From Sabellastarte sp. h YS-2021 (taxonomy: Eukaryota > Annelida > Polychaeta > Sabellida > Sabellidae): a stretch of DNA of 64,000 nucleotides. Every line of letters begins with the position of its first letter. Position 1 is the stretch's first letter. The notes under the pieces are model-generated. The model searched no databases and was not told where the DNA came from. It was given only the letters and a program-made list of their open reading frames with translations. Below are positions 1 through 64,000 of this stretch, piece by piece. Location of the stretch: contig OZ024940.1 in assembly GCA_964017235.1 (NCBI GenBank), forward strand, positions 2,728,001-2,792,000. Direction: 5' to 3'. A program made the position numbers and the translations under genes.

Positions 1-3000
1 TTACATTCCTTAGATACCCTGTGGGTTGAAAAATTTCGACGAAATCGCAAATTCCTGTTTTTCTATTTTTGGCAAAAATTTGAAAATTCAAAATGGCCGC
101 CATTTTTGGGAAAAGGAAATTTTTTTGAAAATTGCCAAGAGTACATTTCTTAGATACCCTATGGGTCGAAAATTTCAACAAAATAACTCTATTTTGCACG
201 GTTAAGGCCAGTTTGTGTTTTTCCATTTTAAGCAATTCGAAAATTCAAAATGGCTGCCATTTTTGGGGAGGGGAAATTTTTTTGAAAATTGCAAAGATTA
301 CATTCCTTAGATACCCTGTGGGTTGAAAAATTTCGACGAAATCGCTCTATCTCGCATGGTTAAGGAGATAGAAGCAAATTTGTGTTTTGCCATTTTTGGC
401 AAAAATTTGAAAATTCAAAATGGCCGCCATTTTTGGGGAGGGGAAAATTTTTGGAAGATTGCAAAGATTGCATTCCTTAGATACCCTGTAGGTCGAAAAT
501 TTCGACGATATCACTCTATCTCGCACGGTTAAGGAGATAGAAGCAAATTTGTGTTTTGCCATTTTTGGCAAAAATTCGAAAATTCAAAATGGCCGCCATT
601 TTTGGGGAGGGGAAAATTTTTGGAAAATTGCAAATATTACATTCCTTAGATACCCTGTGGGTTGAAAATTTCGACGAAATCGCTCTATCTCACACGGTTA
701 AGGAGATAGAAGGAAATTTGTGTTTTGCCATTTTTGGCAAAAATTCGAAAATTCAAAATGGCCGCCATTTTTGGGGAGGGGAAAATTTTTTGAAAATTGC
801 AAGAGTACACTCCTCAGATACCCTGTGGGTCGAAAATTTTGCCGAAATCGCTCTATCTCGCACGGTTAAGGAGATAGAAGCAAATTAGTGTTTTGCCATT
901 TTTGGCAAAAATTCGAAAATTCAAAATGGCCGCCATTTTTGGGGAGGGGAAAATTTTTTGAAAATTGCAAAGAGTACACTCCTCAGATACCCTGTGGGTC
1001 GAAAATTTTGACGAAATCGCTCTATCTCGCACGGTTAAGGAGATAGAAGCAAATTTGTGTTTTGCCATTTTTGGCAAAAATTCGAAAATTTAAAATGGCC
1101 GCCATTTTTAGGGAGGGGAAAATTTTTTGAAAATTGCAAATATTACATTCCTTAGATACCCTGTGGGTCGAAAATTTCAACGAAATCGCTCTATCTCGCA
1201 CGGTTAAGGAGATAGAAGCAAATTTGTGTTTTGCCATTTTTGGCAAAAATTCGAAAATTCAAAATGGCCGCCATTTTTGGGGAGGGGAAAATTTTTTGAA
1301 AATTGCAAAGATTGCATTCCTTAGATACCCTGTGGGTCGAAAATTTCGACAAAATCGCTCTATCTCGCACGCTTAAGGAGATAGAAGCAAATTTGTGTTT
1401 TGCCATTTTTGGCAAAAATTCGAAAATTCAAAATGGCCGCCATTTTTGGGGAGGGGAAAATTTTTTAAAAATTACCAAGAGTACAATGCTCAGATACCCT
1501 GTGGGTCGAAAATTTCGACGAAATCGCTCTATCTGGCACGGTTAAGGAGATAGAAGCAAATTTGTGTTTTGCCATTTTTGGCAAAAATTCGAAAATTCAA
1601 AATGGCCGCCATTTTTGGGGAGGGGAAAATTTTTTGAAGATTGCAAAGATTGCATTCCTTAGATACCCTGTAGGTCGAAAATTTCGACGATATCACTCTA
1701 TCTCGCACGGTTAAGGAGATAGAAGCAAATTTGTGTTTTGCCATTTTTGGCAAAAATTCGAAAATTCAAAATGGCCGCCATTTTTGGGGAGGGGAAAATT
1801 TTTGGAAGATTGCAAATATTACATTGCTTAGATACCCTGTGGGTTGAAAATTTCGACGAAATCGCTCTATCTCGCACGGTTAAGGAGATAGAAGGAAATT
1901 TGTGTTTTGCCATTTTTGGCAAAAATTCGAAAATTCAAAATGGCCGCCATTTTTGGGGAGGGGAAAATTTTTGGAAAATTGCAAATATTACATTCCTTAG
2001 ATACCCTGTGGGTCGAAAATTTTGCCGAAATCGCTCTATCTCGCACGGTTAAGGAGATAGAAGCAAATTAGTGTTTTGCCATTTTTGGCAAAAATTCGAA
2101 AATTCAAAATGGCCGCCATTTATGGGGAGGGGAAAATTTTTTTAAAATTGCAAAGAGTACACTCCTCAGATACCCTGTGGGTCGAAAATTTTGACGAAAT
2201 CGCTCTATCTCGCACGGTTAAGGAGATAGAAGCAAATTTGTGTTTTGCCATTTTTGGCAAAAATTCGAAAATTTAAAATGGCCGCCATTTTTAGGGAGGG
2301 GAAAATTTTTTGAAAATTGCAAATATTACATTCCTTAGATACCCTGTGGGTCGAAAATTTCGACGAAATCGCTCTATCTCGCACGGTTAAGGAGATAGAA
2401 GCAAATTTGTGTTTTGCCATTTTTGGCAAAAATTCGAAAATTCAAAATGGCCGCCATTTTTAGGGAGGGGAAAATTTTTTGAAAATTGCAAAGAGTACAC
2501 TCCTTAGATACCCTGTGGGTTGAAAATTTCGACGAAATCGCTCTATCTCGCACGGTTAAGGAGATAGAGGGAAATTTGTGTTTTGCCATTTTTGGCAAAA
2601 ATTCGAAAATTCAAAATGGCCGCCATTTTTGGGGAGGGGAAAATTTTTTGAAAATTGCAAAGAGTACACTCCTCAGATACCCTGTGGGTCGAAAATTTCG
2701 ACGAAATCGCTCTATCTCGCACGGTTAAGGAGATAGAGGGAAATTTGTGTTTTGCCATTTTTGGCAAAAATTCGAAAATTCAAAATGGCCGCCATTTTTG
2801 GGGAGGGGAAAATTTTTTGAAAATTGCAAAGAGTACACTCCTCAGATACCCTGTGGGTCGAAAATTTTGCCGAAATCGCTCTATCTCGCACGGTTAAGGA
2901 GATAGAAGCAAATTAGTGTTTTGCCATTTTTGGCAAAAATTCGAAAATTCAAAATGGCCGCCATTTTTGGGGAGGGGAAAATTTTTTGAAAATTGCAAAG

Positions 3001-3930
3001 AGTACACTCCTCAGATACCCTGTGGGTCGAAAATTTTGACGAAATCGCTCTATCTCGCACGGTTAAGGAGATAGAAGCAAATTTGTGTTTTGCCATTTTT
3101 GGCAAAAATTCGAAAATTCAAAATGGCCGCCATTTTTGGGGAGGGGAAAATTTTTTGAATATTGCAAAGAGTACACTCCTCAGATACCCTGTGGGTCGAA
3201 AATTTTGACGAAATCGCTCTATCTCGCACGGTTAAGGAGATAGAAGCAAATTTGTGTTTTGCCATTTTTGGCAAAAATTCGAAAATTTAAAATGGCCGCC
3301 ATTTTTAGGGAGGGGAAAATTTTTTGAAAATTGCAAATATTACATTCCTTAGATACCCTGTGGGTCGAAAATTTCGACGAAATCGCTCTATCTCGCACGG
3401 TTAAGGAGATAGAAGCAAATTTGTGTTTTGCCATTTTTGGCAAAAATTCGAAAATTCAAAATGGCCGCCATTTTTGGGGAGGGGAAAATTTTTTGAAAAT
3501 TGCAAAGAGTACACTCCTTAGATACCCTGTGGGTTGAAAATTTCGACGAAATCGCTCTATCTCACACGGTTAAAGAGATAGAGGGAAATTTGTGTTTTGC
3601 CATTTTTGGCAAAAATTCGAAAATTCAAAATGGCCGCCATTTTTGGGGAGGGGAAAATTTTTTGAAAATTGCAAAGAGTACACTCCTCAGATACCCTGTG
3701 GGTCGAAAATTTTGCCGAAATCGCTCTATCTCGCACGGTTAAGGAGATAGAAGCAAATTAGTGTTTTGCCATTTTTGGCAAAAATTCGAAAATTCAAAAT
3801 GGCCGCCATTTTTGGGGAGGGGAAAATTTTTTGAAAATTGCAAAGAGTACACTCCTCAGATACCCTGTGGGTCGAAAATTTTGCCGAAATCGCTCTATCT
3901 TGCACGGTTAAGGAGATACAAGCAAATTAC
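1..3930. repeat. 169-bp satellite array, about 24 monomers
   Basis: A head-to-tail array fills the left end of the window and continues beyond base 1. The landmark AGATACCCTG recurs from 309 to 3858, a distance of exactly 21 x 169 bases. The two left-most intervals are shorter (139 and 158) through internal deletions. Each monomer holds two dyads: TTTTGCCA/TGGCAAAA around a short T loop, and AAAATGGC/GCCATTTT around a single C. Open frames of 74-80 codons recur on both strands but break every monomer because 169 is not a multiple of three, so they are not genes. The array ends at about 3930 in a diverged monomer. As the CLASP gene must extend to the left, the array probably lies inside a CLASP intron or just past its end. 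Confidence 0.97.
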
Positions 3931-8154: not shown

Positions 8155-8239
8155 CTAGAAAAAAGAAAAATATTAAAAAAAAACAATTGCAAGCAATCAG
8201 TGACCGCCTGGGTTCCAAATCTAGGATCAGTACCATTGT

Positions 8240-11834: not shown

Positions 11835-12405
11835 TGGATTCAGTTGGTCATTGATTACAGAAAAAGTGTCCACAATTATTGCATTCATTCGGTCACTGAT
11901 TGCTTGCCCTAACCCAAAAGTGCCCACAATTATTGCATTCATTCGTTCACCGATTGCTATCATTCACAGAAACGTGCCCACAATTACTTTATTCATTCGG
12001 TCACTGATTATTTGCACTCACACAAAAGTGGCCAGAATTACTGTAATCATTCGGTCACTGATTACTTGCACTGATACAAAAACTGTCCACAATTACTGTA
12101 CTCATTCGGTCACTGATTGCTTGCACTCACACAAAAAGTGCCCATAATTTCTACAGTCATTCGGTCACTGATTACTTGCACTGACACAAAAGAGCCCACA
12201 ATTATTGCATTCATTCGGTCACTGATTGCTTGCGCTGACACAAAAAGTGTCCACAATTACTGTACTCATTCGGTCACTGAGTGCTTGCACTCACACAAAA
12301 AGTGCCCACAATTTCTACAGTCATTCGGTCACCGATTGCTTGCGCTCACACAAAAAGTGTCCACAATTACTGTACTCTTTCGGTCACTGATCACTTGCAC
12401 ACACT
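11835..12405. repeat. 55-bp minisatellite running into the E15 donor
   Basis: CGGTCACTGA recurs at 53-55-base steps from 11890 to 12381 (about ten units). Units also carry TTGCACTCACACAAAAAGTG and CCACAATTACTG blocks. The end nearest E15, read on the minus strand, is GTAAGTGTGTGCAAGTGATC, where GTAAGT is the actual donor. The donor-proximal intron is therefore itself repeat-like. The frame at 12117-12521 plus is repeat-derived. Confidence 0.92.
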
Positions 12406-16137: not shown

Positions 16138-16183
<46 letters not shown>

Positions 16184-17160: not shown

Positions 17161-17183
17161 AACTACGTGGTATAATTTGGCAA

Positions 17184-17485
17184 GTAATCAGTGACCGACT
17201 GAATCGGTCACAAATCTAGGGTTGGCACGGACAAACAATCAGTGACTGACTGAATCGGTCACAAATCTAGGGTTGGCACGGACAAACAATCAGTGACCGA
17301 CTGAATCGGTCACAAATCTAGGGTTGGTACGGGCAAACAATCAGTGACCGACTGAATCGGTCACAAATCTAGGGTTGGCATGGACAAACAATCAGTGACC
17401 GACTGAATCGGTCACAAATCTAGTGTTGGCATGGACAAACAATCAGTGACCGACTGAATCGGTCACAAATCTAGGGTTGGCCACA
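17184..17485. repeat. 51-bp minisatellite with a palindrome in every unit
   Basis: CAGTGA recurs at 17189, 17240, 17291, 17342, 17393 and 17444, exactly 51 bases apart. Each unit holds the inverted repeat GTGACCGA / TCGGTCAC around CTGAA (one stem base varies in unit 2), then ACAAATCTAGGGTTGGCA. Six units are nearly identical, so recent expansion or homogenisation is likely. It shares the CAGTGACCGA core with the 55-bp array at 11.8-12.4 kb. Confidence 0.95.
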
Positions 17486-19109: not shown

Positions 19110-19960
19110 TTTTTTTTTTTAAAAAGAAGAAAATTAACACTCAAAGATCGACTAATATAAGCTCGTCACATGTTTCAGACGATAAAGAAAGTGAACCAGA
19201 ATATGAGAAAAGAATATACAAGCAATGGCCACCGGGACCCAGCTGTAAACACCATTCATTCAACTTCAGAATGATCAGATGGAATTTTTTTTTTAAAGCA
19301 AGGACTCAGTTGACCGAGTGAATCGGTCACATATTTAAATGGACGACGATAAAAAAACTGAACCAGACCAAAAAAAGAAAAAGATTTTTACAAAATAAAA
19401 TTAATTACAACAGAAAATCACAAATGAAAGAAAACCCATTGTAAAACCTAAAGGTCGAGAGAAAAAAAAGGGAATTTTCAAAAAGTACCAAAACTATCAC
19501 ATATAATAAAAAAAAAAACAGAAAATAGGAAAACATCTAATAATCTACACTGAATAATTTAAAAAACCCAATACAATAAAGTGAAAATGAAGAGAAACTC
19601 AGGAAAAAAAAAATCTCTCGAGAAAATTTATGAGGCCAACTAAAACAACTCTAAGAAAACTACTACAGCTACAAATACCTCATAATAAAAAAAAAGAAAT
19701 CTGAAAATAGGAAAACATCCCATGATCCTTCCACCAAAGGAAAATCTATCTACAAATAAAAACTATCACTAGAAACTCAACAGAAAAGAAGGGTTCATAA
19801 AAAAAATCTCATTTGAGAAAAAAAAAATGACAAAAAAATAATAACTTAAAAGACAGCAACTACTAGGTGACAAGAAGGATATTCAAAGAAAAAAGTAAAT
19901 AAATAACAAAGAAAATCACCACCACATCTAACGAGACAAAAAAACTAGTCGTTTTTGGGA
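19110..19960. repeat. A-rich low-complexity intron with weak repeats
   Basis: Blocks such as GAAAATAGGAAAACATC recur at about 19520 and 19700. A diverged copy of the GACCGAnTGAATCGGTCACA motif lies at 19313. No exon is visible up to the E13 donor. Confidence 0.6.
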
Positions 19961-38389: not shown

Positions 38390-38820
38390 ACATTAGAATT
38401 AATTTCCTTCAAGTGAAGAAGAGGTACCTCAGTTTGATAAATGAGGTACCAAGTTGACTCAAAAACACCTGGGGTCAATTGCAGATGTACCTTGGTTGAA
38501 TGCCTAAAGGGTTACTTTGGCTCAATAGTACAGATACTGGGTTCAAAAGTAGAGGTATCTTTGTTGAACAAAAGAAGTACCTTGCTTTGACAATAACAGT
38601 ACCTTGGCTCAATAGGAGAAGGGGTACTTAAGCTCCATAAAAAAGATTTCTTGGGTTGAAAAGTACACACACCAAGGTTCATCAGTAGAGGTACCTCCAT
38701 TCAACAGAAGAACTACCTTTGCTCAAAAGAAGACAGGCCTTGGTTCAACAAGAGAGGTATATATATATAAAAAAGTACCTGGGTTAAATAAGGGTACTTG
38801 GGTGAAGCAGAAGAATTGTA
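38390..38820. repeat. Minisatellite on the donor side of E9
   Basis: GAGGTACCTTnGTTnAACA-type units of about 30-45 bases recur roughly ten times, up to within 25 bases of the E9 donor. Confidence 0.8.
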
Positions 38821-38841
38821 AGAAGAAAATGCGTCACCTAC

Positions 38842-39096
38842 CCGTACAACATCTGGGATCGCTCTGTACTCATTGACCTTGCTCTGGATTTCGCAGCAGC
38901 GGAGGTCGCCGACTTGTTCGCCACTCTGCCGGGCCCCACCCCACCTCCGCCCCCACCCCCAGGGGGGCCCCCAATAGAGCTGCTGCTCGAGGAGTTACTC
39001 AGCTCGCCCTGCAGCTGTTTCTGCTTGGTGGGGTCGAGGGAGTTGAGCAGACTCTCGGCCTGATCTCGGAAGTGGTCGTGGAAGCCCCAGAATGCT
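38842..39096 (-). CDS. CLASP exon E9: end of TOG2 and start of linker
   Basis: 255 bases; acceptor TATTGTAG, donor GTAGGT. A GTGACG site 6 bases further would bring in an in-frame TAG, which supports the upstream donor. It encodes KAFWGFHDHFRDQAESLLNS, matching the last TOG2 helix of vertebrate CLASP (K-C/T-Y-W/M-G-F/L-x-x-HF). It then goes through LDPTKQKQLQGELS and a poly-Ser and poly-Gly tract to SRARSMSTERSQMLYG. The first bases and acceptor are duplicated 102 bases upstream. Confidence 0.95.
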
Positions 39097-39262
39097 CTAC
39101 AATATAACAGGAATGAGCAAGCAATCAGTGACCGAATAGATCGATCACATGTCTTGAGTTGCTCAAGATAACAGTGGTCGTGGAAACCCCAGAATGTTCT
39201 ACAATATAACAGGAATGAGCAAGCAATCAGTGACCGAATGGATCGGCCACATGTCTAGAGTT
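39071..39262 (-). repeat. 102-bp tandem duplication containing the E9 acceptor
   Basis: AGTGGTCGTGGAAGCCCCAG at 39071 recurs as AGTGGTCGTGGAAACCCCAG at 39173, and the following ACAATATAACAGGAATGAGC is identical in both copies. The unit holds the first 26 bases of E9, the acceptor, and intron with a CAGTGACCGAATnGATCG motif. The upstream copy provides a complete second acceptor (exon start 39198). Confidence 0.95.
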
Positions 39263-39335
39263 GCTCAAGATAACAGAAAACATAAAAAGAAATTTAACAC
39301 GAGTCAACAATAATATTCACCCTCAATATATTATT

Positions 39336-39358
39336 CCCCCCCCCCCCCCCCCCCCCCC
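39336..39358. repeat. Poly(C) run of 23 bases
   Basis: An uninterrupted C tract; it reads as G in the CLASP transcript. Confidence 0.9.
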
Positions 39359-39431
39359 TTTAATAGGACCTCTGGAACATATTGTAATATCCTCACGTAT
39401 ATCAGTTCTATTAATACCTGGGCTTCCGGGG

Positions 39432-39540
39432 ACTCCCCTTTAGCTCATCTGGTTAAAGAGCTAGACTTGTGTTTACATTCTGTGTGTAACCAGATGGCTG
39501 GGAGTTCGAGACACAGCAGAACCAATCAATAATTTCTCCC
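39432..39540 (+). repeat. tRNA-like sequence, probably a SINE head or tRNA pseudogene
   Basis: TTAGCTCATCTGGTTAAAGAGC resembles a tRNA D-arm/A box (first 20 bases) and GGGAGTTCGAGACAC a B box, about 50 bases apart. I cannot fold a complete cloverleaf with a clear anticodon stem, so a functional tRNA gene is unlikely. Confidence 0.4.
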
Positions 39541-39569
39541 TTCCCACTACAATCTGTCTATGTGAGGTT

Positions 39570-39807
39570 TAGGGGGCCACGGTGGCAGAGTGGTAACACT
39601 CTCGCCTCCCACCTCTGAGGCCGGGGTTCGATTCCCGGCACGGCCTCAAGTGGGAAAGCTGGTAGTTGCTTGCCGTTGGTCGGCAGTTTACACTAATCCT
39701 AACGAACTGTATGTACTGGTTTCCTCTGCCCTTCCAACTACCCGTCGTGATATGACCTGTACAGTGTTGAAAGCGACGTAAAACCCCAAATAAATAAATA
39801 AATAAAA
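39570..39807 (+). mobile_element. Family A SINE, plus strand, with 12-bp target duplication
   Basis: It starts GGGGGCCACGGTGGCAGAG and ends CCCCAAATAAATAAATAAA. CTATGTGAGGTT is exact at 39558-39569 and 39808-39819. The orientation gives a direct view of the A box, B box and AT-rich tail. Confidence 0.95.
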
Positions 39808-39947
39808 CTATGTGAGGTTCATTAGTATTTTCTCGAACATGCTGAACCTTGGACACAATTAACCGATCAGTCGGTGTTTAATGCAAGACACACTACCCGG
39901 CTAGCACATTTTTGCACATAACTTCAGGCTTAACGCTAAAAACTCAC

Positions 39948-40085
39948 TTCCTGGAGTGAGCGCGGGTGTCGGCATCCGCGTCACTGATACCCTTCTTGAT
40001 GCTCTCCTGTATGACGGCGATGTGTCGCTCCAGCGTGTGTGTGGGCCAGGTCTGCAGTACCTGGCAGAGGTACTCACAACTCTCC
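39948..40085 (-). CDS. CLASP exon E8: TOG2
   Basis: 138 bases; TTTTTTCCAG acceptor, GTGAGT donor. It encodes RESCEYLCQVLQTWPTHTLE and RHIAVIQESIKKGISDADAD, then TRAHSRK. This is nearly colinear with vertebrate CLASP FLLQEWQTHSLERH, VETIKKGIHDAD and EARxEARK. These are the fifth and sixth HEAT repeats of TOG2. It is among the strongest matches in the window. Confidence 0.97.
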
Positions 40086-40287
40086 CTGGAAAAAAGGTAC
40101 AAATATTTTTCAGTAGAGGTACTTAAAGGGACTCCCTGAAAGTGACAGAAATATCCGAGAGAGGAACTCCCCACTCTAAAAGTATAAATTGTACTCGAGA
40201 GACTGAAAACTGAAACCATAGAAATATCTGACTGAGGTACCCACAACTCTTTATGAAAAGGTAGATTTATGGGTCATAGGTACGTAC
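40086..40287. repeat. 202-bp intron built from echoes of the E8 start
   Basis: The junction block at 40068-40100 (GAGGTACTCACAACTCTCCC then TGGAAAAAAGGTAC) recurs as GAGGTACCCACAACTCTTTA then TGAAAAGGTAG at 40231-40264. Weaker copies (GAGGTACTTAAAGGGACTCC, GAGGAACTCCCCACTCT) lie between. The whole E7-E8 intron appears to derive from a unit of about 55 bases that includes the exon edge. Confidence 0.75.
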
Positions 40288-61476: not shown

Positions 61477-61650
61477 TGTGGCGGCCATCTTGTTTCTCAA
61501 AATGAGGCCAAAAATATTCCCAGACAACATTTTATGGTTATTAATATATACTGCAAACTTAAGAAAGCTAGCTATAATATTTTTTTTCATCAGAGCAGTA
61601 ATGGTGAAATCTCTCTCTACACACTGCGGCTATCCAGTGGATACAATGAT
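61477..61650 (+). repeat. Dispersed repeat abutting the right-hand satellite
   Basis: Second copy of the 47895-48078 repeat. Its last words (CCAGTGGATACAATGAT) run straight into the first TTTACTCAACAGTGA landmark of the satellite. Confidence 0.88.
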
Positions 61651-64000
61651 TTACTCAACAGTGAAAACTTGAAAGTAGCTATTGCTCAGCTATGCCATGA
61701 CATAGAGGTCTGCAATTTCACTATGTTATAGCTGACCAAAAATTCTGTGAATAACATATTTAACAAATTACTCTAAATGTAATAGTTTTCAAGTTACAAC
61801 TGATTTACTCAACAGTGAGATCCTCAAAGGAACTATTACTCAGCTATGCAATGAGCTACATGTCTGAAATTTTACTATGTTATAGCTAACCCAAAAGTAG
61901 GTGAACAACATATTTAAGCAAACTACTGTAAATGCAATAGTTTTCAAGCTACAACTGATTTACTCAATAGTGAGAACCTGAAAATAGCTATTGCTCCGCT
62001 ATGCCATGAGCTATAGGTCTGTAATTTCACTATGTTATAGCTGACCCAAAAGTAGGTGAACAATATATTTTAACAAAATACTCCAAATGCAATATTTTTC
62101 AAGTTATAGCTGATTTACTCAACAGTCAGTACCTGAGAATAGCTATTGCTCAGTTGTGCCATGAGCTATAGGTCTATAATTTCACTATGTTATAGCTGAC
62201 CCAAAAGTAGCTGAATAACATATTTATACCAAATTTTCTAAATGCAATAGTTTTTAAGTTACAAGTGATTTTACTCATAATGGAAGTTACTGAAAAGCCC
62301 AAAAGTAGCTATTACTCACTTAGCTATTGAGACAGACACCCAACTTACTCACCATATTGTAGCTATGAAAAAAGTAGCTGAATAACATATTTTAACAAAA
62401 TGCTCTAAATGCAACACTTTTCAAGTTATAAGTGATTTACTCAACAGTGATAACCTAAAAGTAGCTATTACTCAGCTATGCCATGAGCTACAGGTCTGAA
62501 ATTTTACTATGTTATAGCTGACCCAAAAGTAGCTGAATAACATATTTATACGAAATTCTCTAAATGCAATAGTTTTCAAGTTATAAGCGATTTACTCAAC
62601 AGTGATAACCTAAAAGTAGCTATTACTCAGCTATGCCATGAGCTACAGGTCTGAAATTTCACTATGTTATAGCTGGCCCAAAAGTAGCTGAATAACATAT
62701 TTGCACAAATTTCTGTAAATGCAATAGTTTTCCAATAACTGATTTACTCAACAGTGAGAACTTCAAAGTAGCTATTACTCAGCTATGAAATGAGCCACAG
62801 GTCTGAAACTTCACTATGTTATAGCTGACCCCAAAATAGGTGAATAACATATTGAAACAAAATACTCTAAATGCAATAGTTTTCAAGTTATAAGTGATTT
62901 ACTCAACAGTGATAACCTAAAAGTAGCTATTACTCAGCTATGCCATGAGCTACAGGTCTGAAATTTTACTATGTTATAGCTGGCCCAAAAGTAGCTGAAT
63001 AACATATTTATACGAAATTGTCTAAATGCAATAGTTTTTAAGTTACAAGTGATTTTACTCATGACGGAAGTTACTGAAAAGCCCAAAAGTAGCTATTACT
63101 CACTTAGCTATTGAGACAGACACCCAACTTACTCACCATATTGTAGCTATGAAAAAAGTAGCTGAATAACATATTTTAACAAAATGCTCTAAATGCAACA
63201 CTTTTCAAGTTATAAGTGATTTACTCAACAGTGATAACCTAAAAGTAGCTATTACTCAGCTATGCCATGAGCTACAGGTCTGAAATTTTACTATGTTATA
63301 GCTAACCCAAAAGTAGCTGAATAACATATTTATACGAAATTCTCTAAATGCAATAGTTTTCAAGTTATAAGCGATTTACTCAACAGTGATAACCTAAAAG
63401 TAGCTATTACTCAGCTATGCCATGAGCTACAGGTCTGAAATTTCACTATGTTATAGCTGGCCCAAAAGTAGCTGAATAACATATTTGCACAAATTTCTGT
63501 AAATGCAATAGTTTTTAAGTTACAAGTGATTTTACTCATAATGGAAGTTACTGAAAAGCCCAAAAGTAGCTATTACTCACTTAGCTATTGAGACAGACAC
63601 CCAACTTACTCACCATATTGTAGCTATGAAAAAAGTAGCTGAATAACATATTTTAACAAAATGCTCTAAATGCAACACTTTTCAAGTTATAAGTGATTTA
63701 CTCAACAGTGATAACCTAAAAGTAGCTATTACTCAGCTATGCCATGAGCTACAGGTCTGAAATTTTACTATGTTATAGCTAACCCAAAGGTAGCTGAATA
63801 ACATATTTATACGAAATTCTCTAAATGCAATAGTTTTCAAGTTATAAGCGATTTACTCAACAGTGATAACCTAAAAGTAGCTATTACTCAGCTATGCCAT
63901 GAGCTACAGGTCTGAAATTTCACTATGTTATAGCTGGCCCAAAAGTAGCTGAATAACATATTTGCACAAATTTCTGTAAATGCAATAGTTTTCCAATTAT
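61640..64000. repeat. 154-166-bp satellite array, 15 monomers, open at the right
   Basis: The landmark TTACTC recurs at 61651, 61805, 61960, 62115, 62271, 62437, 62592, 62745, 62899, 63055, 63221, 63376, 63532, 63698 and 63853. Steps are 153-156, except 166 after each monomer of a special type (TTACTCATnAnGGAAGTTACTG) at 62271, 63055 and 63532. No open frame is conserved. It is unrelated to the 169-bp satellite at the left. Confidence 0.97.

What the first reader, a model, noticed from the sequence alone, without database searches (positions are those of the whole stretch)
39071..39262. In-frame 102-bp duplication of the E9 acceptor creates a ready alternative exon
The duplicated acceptor (exon start 39198) lies exactly 102 bases upstream of the normal one (39096). 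The 34 added codons are fully open, including former intron. Using it would repeat the FWGFHDH segment of the last TOG2 helix and insert a hydrophobic/Cys-containing stretch. A duplicated 3' splice site that keeps frame with no stop by chance is uncommon.
Basis: partly seen in the sequence, partly recalled or inferred. Interest (0 to 1): 0.72.

Follow-up and report, generated by a model that had tools for sequence, protein, structure and literature searches.

The report
Duplicated, transposon-derived CLASP splice acceptor
A 102-base tandem duplication gives one exon of the microtubule-regulator gene CLASP two near-identical places to start, both built on the tail of an old mobile element, so the cell could make a protein 34 amino acids longer, although nothing here shows that it does.

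Summary
Confirmed: two 102-nt copies (39173-39274, 39071-39172, minus strand; 96 of 102 identical) duplicate the acceptor of the CLASP exon encoding the end of TOG2. Exon starts 39198 and 39096 share phase and the 34 added codons are open; the short form matches human CLASP.

Chance is not excluded: comparable inserts are open at 15-21% of sites, times one third for frame. The open frame rests on AAG where the other copy, and most related repeats, read TAG.

New: the intronic part is the 3' end of a dispersed HINE-like (Helentron) transposon (373 exact 18-mers in the 1.79-Gb genome), with a hairpin and a branch-point-like CTGAT. The exact E9 subtype has five loci in the genome; all five lie within 30 nt of an acceptor-like site with an open exon behind it, including CLASP, INTS2 and a collagen. 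Against: an automatic screen of 90 exact tails showed no overall excess of acceptors.

Best reading: a transposon-derived acceptor that was later duplicated, giving two competing acceptors; the long form is probably minor. No RNA data were available, so use of 39198 is untested.

The parts
39173..39274 (-). Upstream copy of the 102-nt unit (76 intronic + 26 exon-like bases)
39071..39172 (-). Downstream copy of the unit, with the ordinary exon 9 acceptor and the first 26 bases of exon 9
38842..39096 (-). CLASP exon 9, short form, 255 nt (end of TOG2 and linker)
38842..39198 (-). Possible long form of exon 9, 357 nt, 34 extra codons
   Evidence: use not shown
39948..40085 (-). CLASP exon 8, donor gtgagt, phase fits both acceptors
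39215..39266 (-). HINE-like 3' end in the upstream copy (hairpin, CACTGATTGCTTG)
39113..39164 (-). HINE-like 3' end in the downstream copy
39255..39257 (-). TAG in the reading register, upstream copy (AAG at 39153-39155 in the downstream copy)
8187..8233 (-). Diverged copy of the same tail, 32 nt before the acceptor of another CLASP exon (8154-8047)

Best explanation
A HINE-like (non-autonomous Helentron) element ended, in sense orientation, just upstream of the exon 9 acceptor of CLASP. Its 3' end (hairpin, then CACTGATTGCTTG) stayed as the upstream part of the 3' splice site and probably supplies the branch point. Later a 102-nt segment covering this acceptor and the first 26 exon bases was duplicated in tandem, with a 2-nt microhomology (CT) at the junction. 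The pre-mRNA now offers two acceptors of equal strength in one phase. The downstream one makes the ordinary protein; the upstream one would add 34 residues inside the last TOG2 helix and is most likely a minor or variable form. Shown: duplication, phase, open frame, CLASP identity, membership of the tail in a dispersed family. Inferred: branch-point use, order of events, any use of the upstream acceptor.
For: Duplication and phase; CLASP TOG2; equal acceptor scores of 5.0 on a simple matrix of my own; tail repeated genome-wide, 373 exact and 791 with up to one mismatch, reversed control 0, while the whole 206-nt region occurs once; T after the tail in 89 of 90 copies and unique flanks beyond it; all 5 loci of the exact E9 subtype lie within 30 nt of an acceptor-like site with an open exon behind it, with homology for CLASP, INTS2 and collagen; CT at the junction.
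Against: No RNA evidence for either acceptor. The branch point is inferred from a motif; CTCAT nearer the AG is another candidate. An automatic screen of 90 exact tails found 3 acceptor-exon candidates against 2, 5 and 5 of 90 in zones farther downstream, i.e. no overall excess. A search for the subterminal inverted repeats expected of a HINE found none (limited).
Confidence: 0.6

Rival explanations
1. The long form is a regulated, functional CLASP isoform with a remodelled last TOG2 helix.
For: Frame kept and open; a stop probably lost from the downstream copy; both acceptors intact; the first FWGFHDH would keep the native start of the helix; a single-sequence model of the long stretch is helical, mean pLDDT 73.8, pTM 0.41.
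Against: Openness is not rare; no excess of conservation over the acceptor block (P = 0.26); one observed stop loss among a few changes is weak; the model has no alignment behind it.
Confidence: 0.12
2. The upstream acceptor is silent or pure splicing noise and the duplication is neutral debris.
For: The exon-like part of the upstream copy has drifted (2 of 26 bases, one changing an amino acid); no sign of selection.
Against: Its branch-point, tract and AG block is identical to the used one, and by recalled rules for duplicated acceptors it is not expected to be silent.
Confidence: 0.23
3. Artefact or private variant: the duplication is an assembly error or limited to one haplotype.
For: A run of 23 G lies about 60 nt upstream of the unit, a hard spot for assembly; no reads could be checked.
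Against: The copies differ at 6 of 102 sites; a DNA search of the assembly found only one full-length place.
Confidence: 0.05

Closest known systems
HINE, non-autonomous Helentron (PMC4067079 and PMC7492417, passages read)
   Same: Palindrome near the 3' end, T-rich/TT target with boundary Ts, central tandem repeats, many non-coding copies
   Different: Subterminal inverted repeats and autonomous partner not found or not tested; here the end sits at splice acceptors
Transposon-derived splice sites (exonization, e.g. MIR/Alu; listing only, PMC6822395)
   Same: Mobile DNA supplies signals of a 3' splice site
   Different: Here the acceptor of an old conserved exon is involved, not a new exon made of the element
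Introners (PMC9860276, listing and term search without hits)
   Same: Mobile DNA linked to splice sites in several genes
   Different: The tail covers only the end of an 851-nt intron; nothing like it found at the donor side
Alternative 3' splice sites made by local duplication (general knowledge, recalled)
   Same: Two near-identical acceptors in one phase
   Different: Unit is transposon-derived; use not shown

Membership tests
CLASP (TOG2 domain) | Sequence match to CLASP TOG2 over consecutive exons | tested here: met
   PDB CLASP1/CLASP2 chains 4k92 and 3woy match four ORF fragments
HINE / Helentron | Palindrome 8-35 bp from the 3' terminus | tested here: met
   GTGACCGA..TCGGTCAC ends 10 nt before the end of CTTG
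HINE / Helentron | Insertion at TT, Ts at the boundary | tested here: met
   T in 89 of 90 and 82 of 90 at the first two bases after CTTG, then mixed
HINE / Helentron | Central tandem repeats | tested here: met
   The window's 61647-64000 array matches 57 of 128 fetched loci; repeats seen upstream of tails
HINE / Helentron | Subterminal inverted repeats | tested here: inconclusive
   No exact inverted 12-mer within 1.5 kb upstream in 115 loci; many loci were cut shorter than the element
HINE / Helentron | Autonomous partner with Rep/helicase | not tested
   not searched
Introner | Element makes up the intron, with both splice sites in or at it | tested here: not met
   Only one significant tail match in intron 8, at the acceptor end
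Alternative 3' splice site | Both junctions present in RNA | not testable with these tools
   no RNA reads held

The most novel reading that the evidence does not exclude
The 3' end of a Helentron-like transposon acts as a portable 3' splice site in this genome: hairpin, branch point and start of a pyrimidine tract arrive together when the element lands in T-rich sequence at an intron end, so such insertions are tolerated and then kept by selection. In CLASP the cassette went one step further and was duplicated, making a new in-frame isoform possible. The old E9 subtype survives only where it serves an exon (5 of 5 loci of the exact pattern).
Probability: 0.33. Interest if true: 0.75.

Novelty: new variant of a known kind. 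Interest (0 to 1): 0.48.

Why it matters
The duplication alone is a neat but modest case of a possible new isoform. The wider point is testable: if the end of a rolling-circle transposon repeatedly serves as acceptor of conserved exons, insertion at intron ends need not be harmful, and acceptors can be renewed or multiplied by mobile DNA. The five-locus census gives a small set, complete for its exact pattern, to test by lariat mapping and by comparison with relatives.

Tried and rejected
Conserved acceptor block as a sign of selection: longest run 42 nt, P = 0.26. Rfam, gathering threshold, on the window: no match. Tail pattern in viral contigs: none. Text search for a 12-mer of the tail: one unrelated mouse paper in the listing. 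Introner model: not met for this intron. Inverted repeats of 14 nt or more in 38600-40100: none found by that tool, although folding shows the shorter hairpin. General exon-proximity of repeats as the cause: 25 other tandem arrays P = 0.36 and five other dispersed families P = 0.20-0.53, against P = 5e-5 for the five tail loci of the window (statistic chosen after seeing the data; the same family, detected as three loci only, gave P = 0.045). Excess of acceptors after exact tails: none overall; without the family-A body 2 of 24 against 5 of 648 control zones, with it 0 of 66 against 18 of 1782; at looser cut-offs 3 of 24 against 11 of 648 and 1 of 66 against 46 of 1782. A wider subtype census was sent four times and not answered.

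Papers: PMC4067079 and PMC7492417 were seen as listing and term passages; PMC9860276 as listing and a term search without hits; all others only as listings. No paper joining Helentron or HINE ends to splice acceptors showed in the listings (the last returned none); nothing else was searched on that point.

Full report
What is in the sequence. The minus strand of the window carries CLASP exons. Exon 9 starts at 39096 and continues the human-like ..HSRK|AFWGFHDHF.. of exon 8. The 102 nt around its acceptor are present twice, 39173-39274 and 39071-39172, with 6 mismatches and no indels. The unit holds 76 intronic and 26 exonic bases. The flanks share CT at the junction, as expected of a small tandem duplication made by end joining or slippage (inference).

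The open frame. Using 39198 lengthens the exon from 255 to 357 nt and adds TFWGFHDHCYLEQLKTCDRSIRSLIACSFLLYCR. Inserts built in the same way are open at 524 of 3474 minus-strand AG sites of the window and at 59 of 282 with a pyrimidine tract. With one third for frame that is 5-7%, so the finder's 'uncommon' is fair for a single site but weak as evidence of function. In the register that matters the upstream copy reads CTC TAG and the downstream copy CTC AAG. Of 66 distinct related copies aligned, 64 have a base there: T 52, C 5, A 5, G 2. So T, hence a stop, is the likelier ancestral state, and the frame was probably opened after the duplication. A does occur in some relatives, so this is not certain.

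What the intronic part is. Its core recurs in the window at 8187-8233, in a 51-bp array at 17178-17482, at 19298-19336, and as a half motif in a 55-bp array at 11857-12404. The window lies in a genome of 1.786 Gb; a DNA search places the full 206-nt region once, while its inner ~50 nt has many relatives (40 of 220 candidates scored). Exact TCGGTCACTGATTGCTTG occurs 373 times, and 791 times with up to one mismatch; the reversed control has none. Fetched copies show longer elements that share this 3' end and differ in their bodies, after which flanks differ. T follows CTTG in 89 of 90 copies and again in 82 of 90. A 3' palindrome close to the end, TT insertion with boundary Ts and central tandem repeats are published marks of HINEs, non-autonomous Helentrons (passages of PMC4067079 and PMC7492417). 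The window's own 61647-64000 array matches 57 of 128 fetched loci. Subterminal inverted repeats were not found in a limited test of 115 loci, so I call the element HINE-like.

Tail and splice sites. In the window the five tail loci lie 32, 5, 131, 660 and 16 nt from CLASP exons (exon table of my own, partly approximate). Random placement gives this or closer with P = 5e-5; the statistic was chosen afterwards, and a second run that detected the family as three loci only gave P = 0.045. Genome-wide the exact E9 subtype, GACATGTG..TTCGGTCACTGATT, has 6 matches at 5 loci. All five show a tract and AG within 30 nt of the tail and an open reading frame behind it: CLASP; INTS2 (PF14750, E 1.3e-15; PDB 7cun, E 1.6e-10); a collagen (PF01391, E 0.0037, below its cut-off); one with a weak kinase match (E 0.024, below cut-off, and no PDB match); and one open exon without clear homology. 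Three of the five (L002, L003, L023) were first met as good hits to the E9 sequence, but the census pattern holds nothing downstream of the tail. A near relative, ACATGTG after CT (L094), has no exon there. Four of the five loci lie on contig C21, 31.4 Mb of the genome; I cannot explain this.

The broader sample is less clear. All 100 places listed for the exact 18-mer, out of 373, were fetched. Homology supports an exon whose acceptor lies 29-50 nt after the tail in 3 of 100: KLHDC3-like (PDB 9d1i, E 4.9e-16), FANCL (PF18890, E 8e-6, above cut-off; in the PDB only E 0.31) and the collagen. Three more (L084, L087, L112) look exon-like without homology in the searches made. I read by eye only the 24 copies without the family-A body and the last 10; the other 66 were screened by program. 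That program, on the first 90, found 3 acceptor-exon candidates 8-70 nt downstream (L071, L079, L087), against 2, 5 and 5 of 90 in zones farther downstream, 0 or 1 of 90 in four upstream zones, and 0 of 90 in four antisense zones. So exact copies as a whole show no excess over the downstream background. Copies lacking the common body show 2 of 24 against 5 of 648 control zones, copies with it 0 of 66 against 18 of 1782. In the first set of 27 loci picked by similarity to E9 the same program found 2 of 9 without and 1 of 18 with the body. The fair reading is that some old copies sit at acceptors, most simply because those that became part of a splice site were kept.

How it most likely works. 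Helentron-type elements favour T-rich targets (PMC4067079 passage); here T is 37.2% in the 20 nt after the boundary against 33.6% farther on, a small effect. A pyrimidine tract is such a target. The end of the element brings CACTGATT, which fits a branch point, 29 nt before the AG of exon 9. Folded as RNA the stretch forms a hairpin of about -21 kcal/mol in both copies; the two substitutions in the stem leave G-U pairs. So a sense insertion can leave a working acceptor (inference). In CLASP this acceptor was then duplicated. Two equal acceptors in one phase should compete; recalled experiments favour the one nearer the donor, while exon length favours the other. I expect a minor long form, with about even odds that it is detectable and about one in ten that it matters. 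The first copy of FWGFHDH would keep the native start of the last TOG2 helix; a single-sequence model of 69 residues of the long form is helical but of low confidence (pLDDT 73.8, pTM 0.41).

Verdict. The more interesting fact is its origin from a transposon end that also sits at acceptors of other conserved genes.

Noticed in passing
window 11857-12404: Ten 55-bp units carrying the half hairpin in antisense begin within about 10 nt of the donor of a CLASP exon (12540-12409); each unit, read in gene sense, holds a GTGAGT.
   Followed up: partly
window 17178-17482: About six 51-bp head-to-tail units of the tail, 131 nt from the donor of a CLASP exon (17724-17614).
   Followed up: partly
window 8187-8233: Another copy of the tail 32 nt before the acceptor of a second CLASP exon (8154-8047).
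   Followed up: partly
window 61647-64000: 155-bp tandem array that matches the central repeats of the same element superfamily in 57 of 128 fetched loci.
   Followed up: partly
genome contig C21 (the window's contig): Four of the five loci of the exact E9 subtype of the tail lie on this 31.4-Mb contig of a 1786-Mb genome; unexplained.
   Followed up: no
window 47-3928: Satellite of 23 units of 169 bp, 94% matches, open in several frames by periodicity.
   Followed up: no
window 39336-39358 and 16138-16181: Long G/C homopolymer runs (23 G on the minus strand, 44 G on the plus strand), possible weak spots of the assembly.
   Followed up: no
window, ten places from 4420 to 60441: A dispersed family of about 200-250 bp with ten loci in the window, not clustered at exons (P = 0.37).
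   Followed up: no
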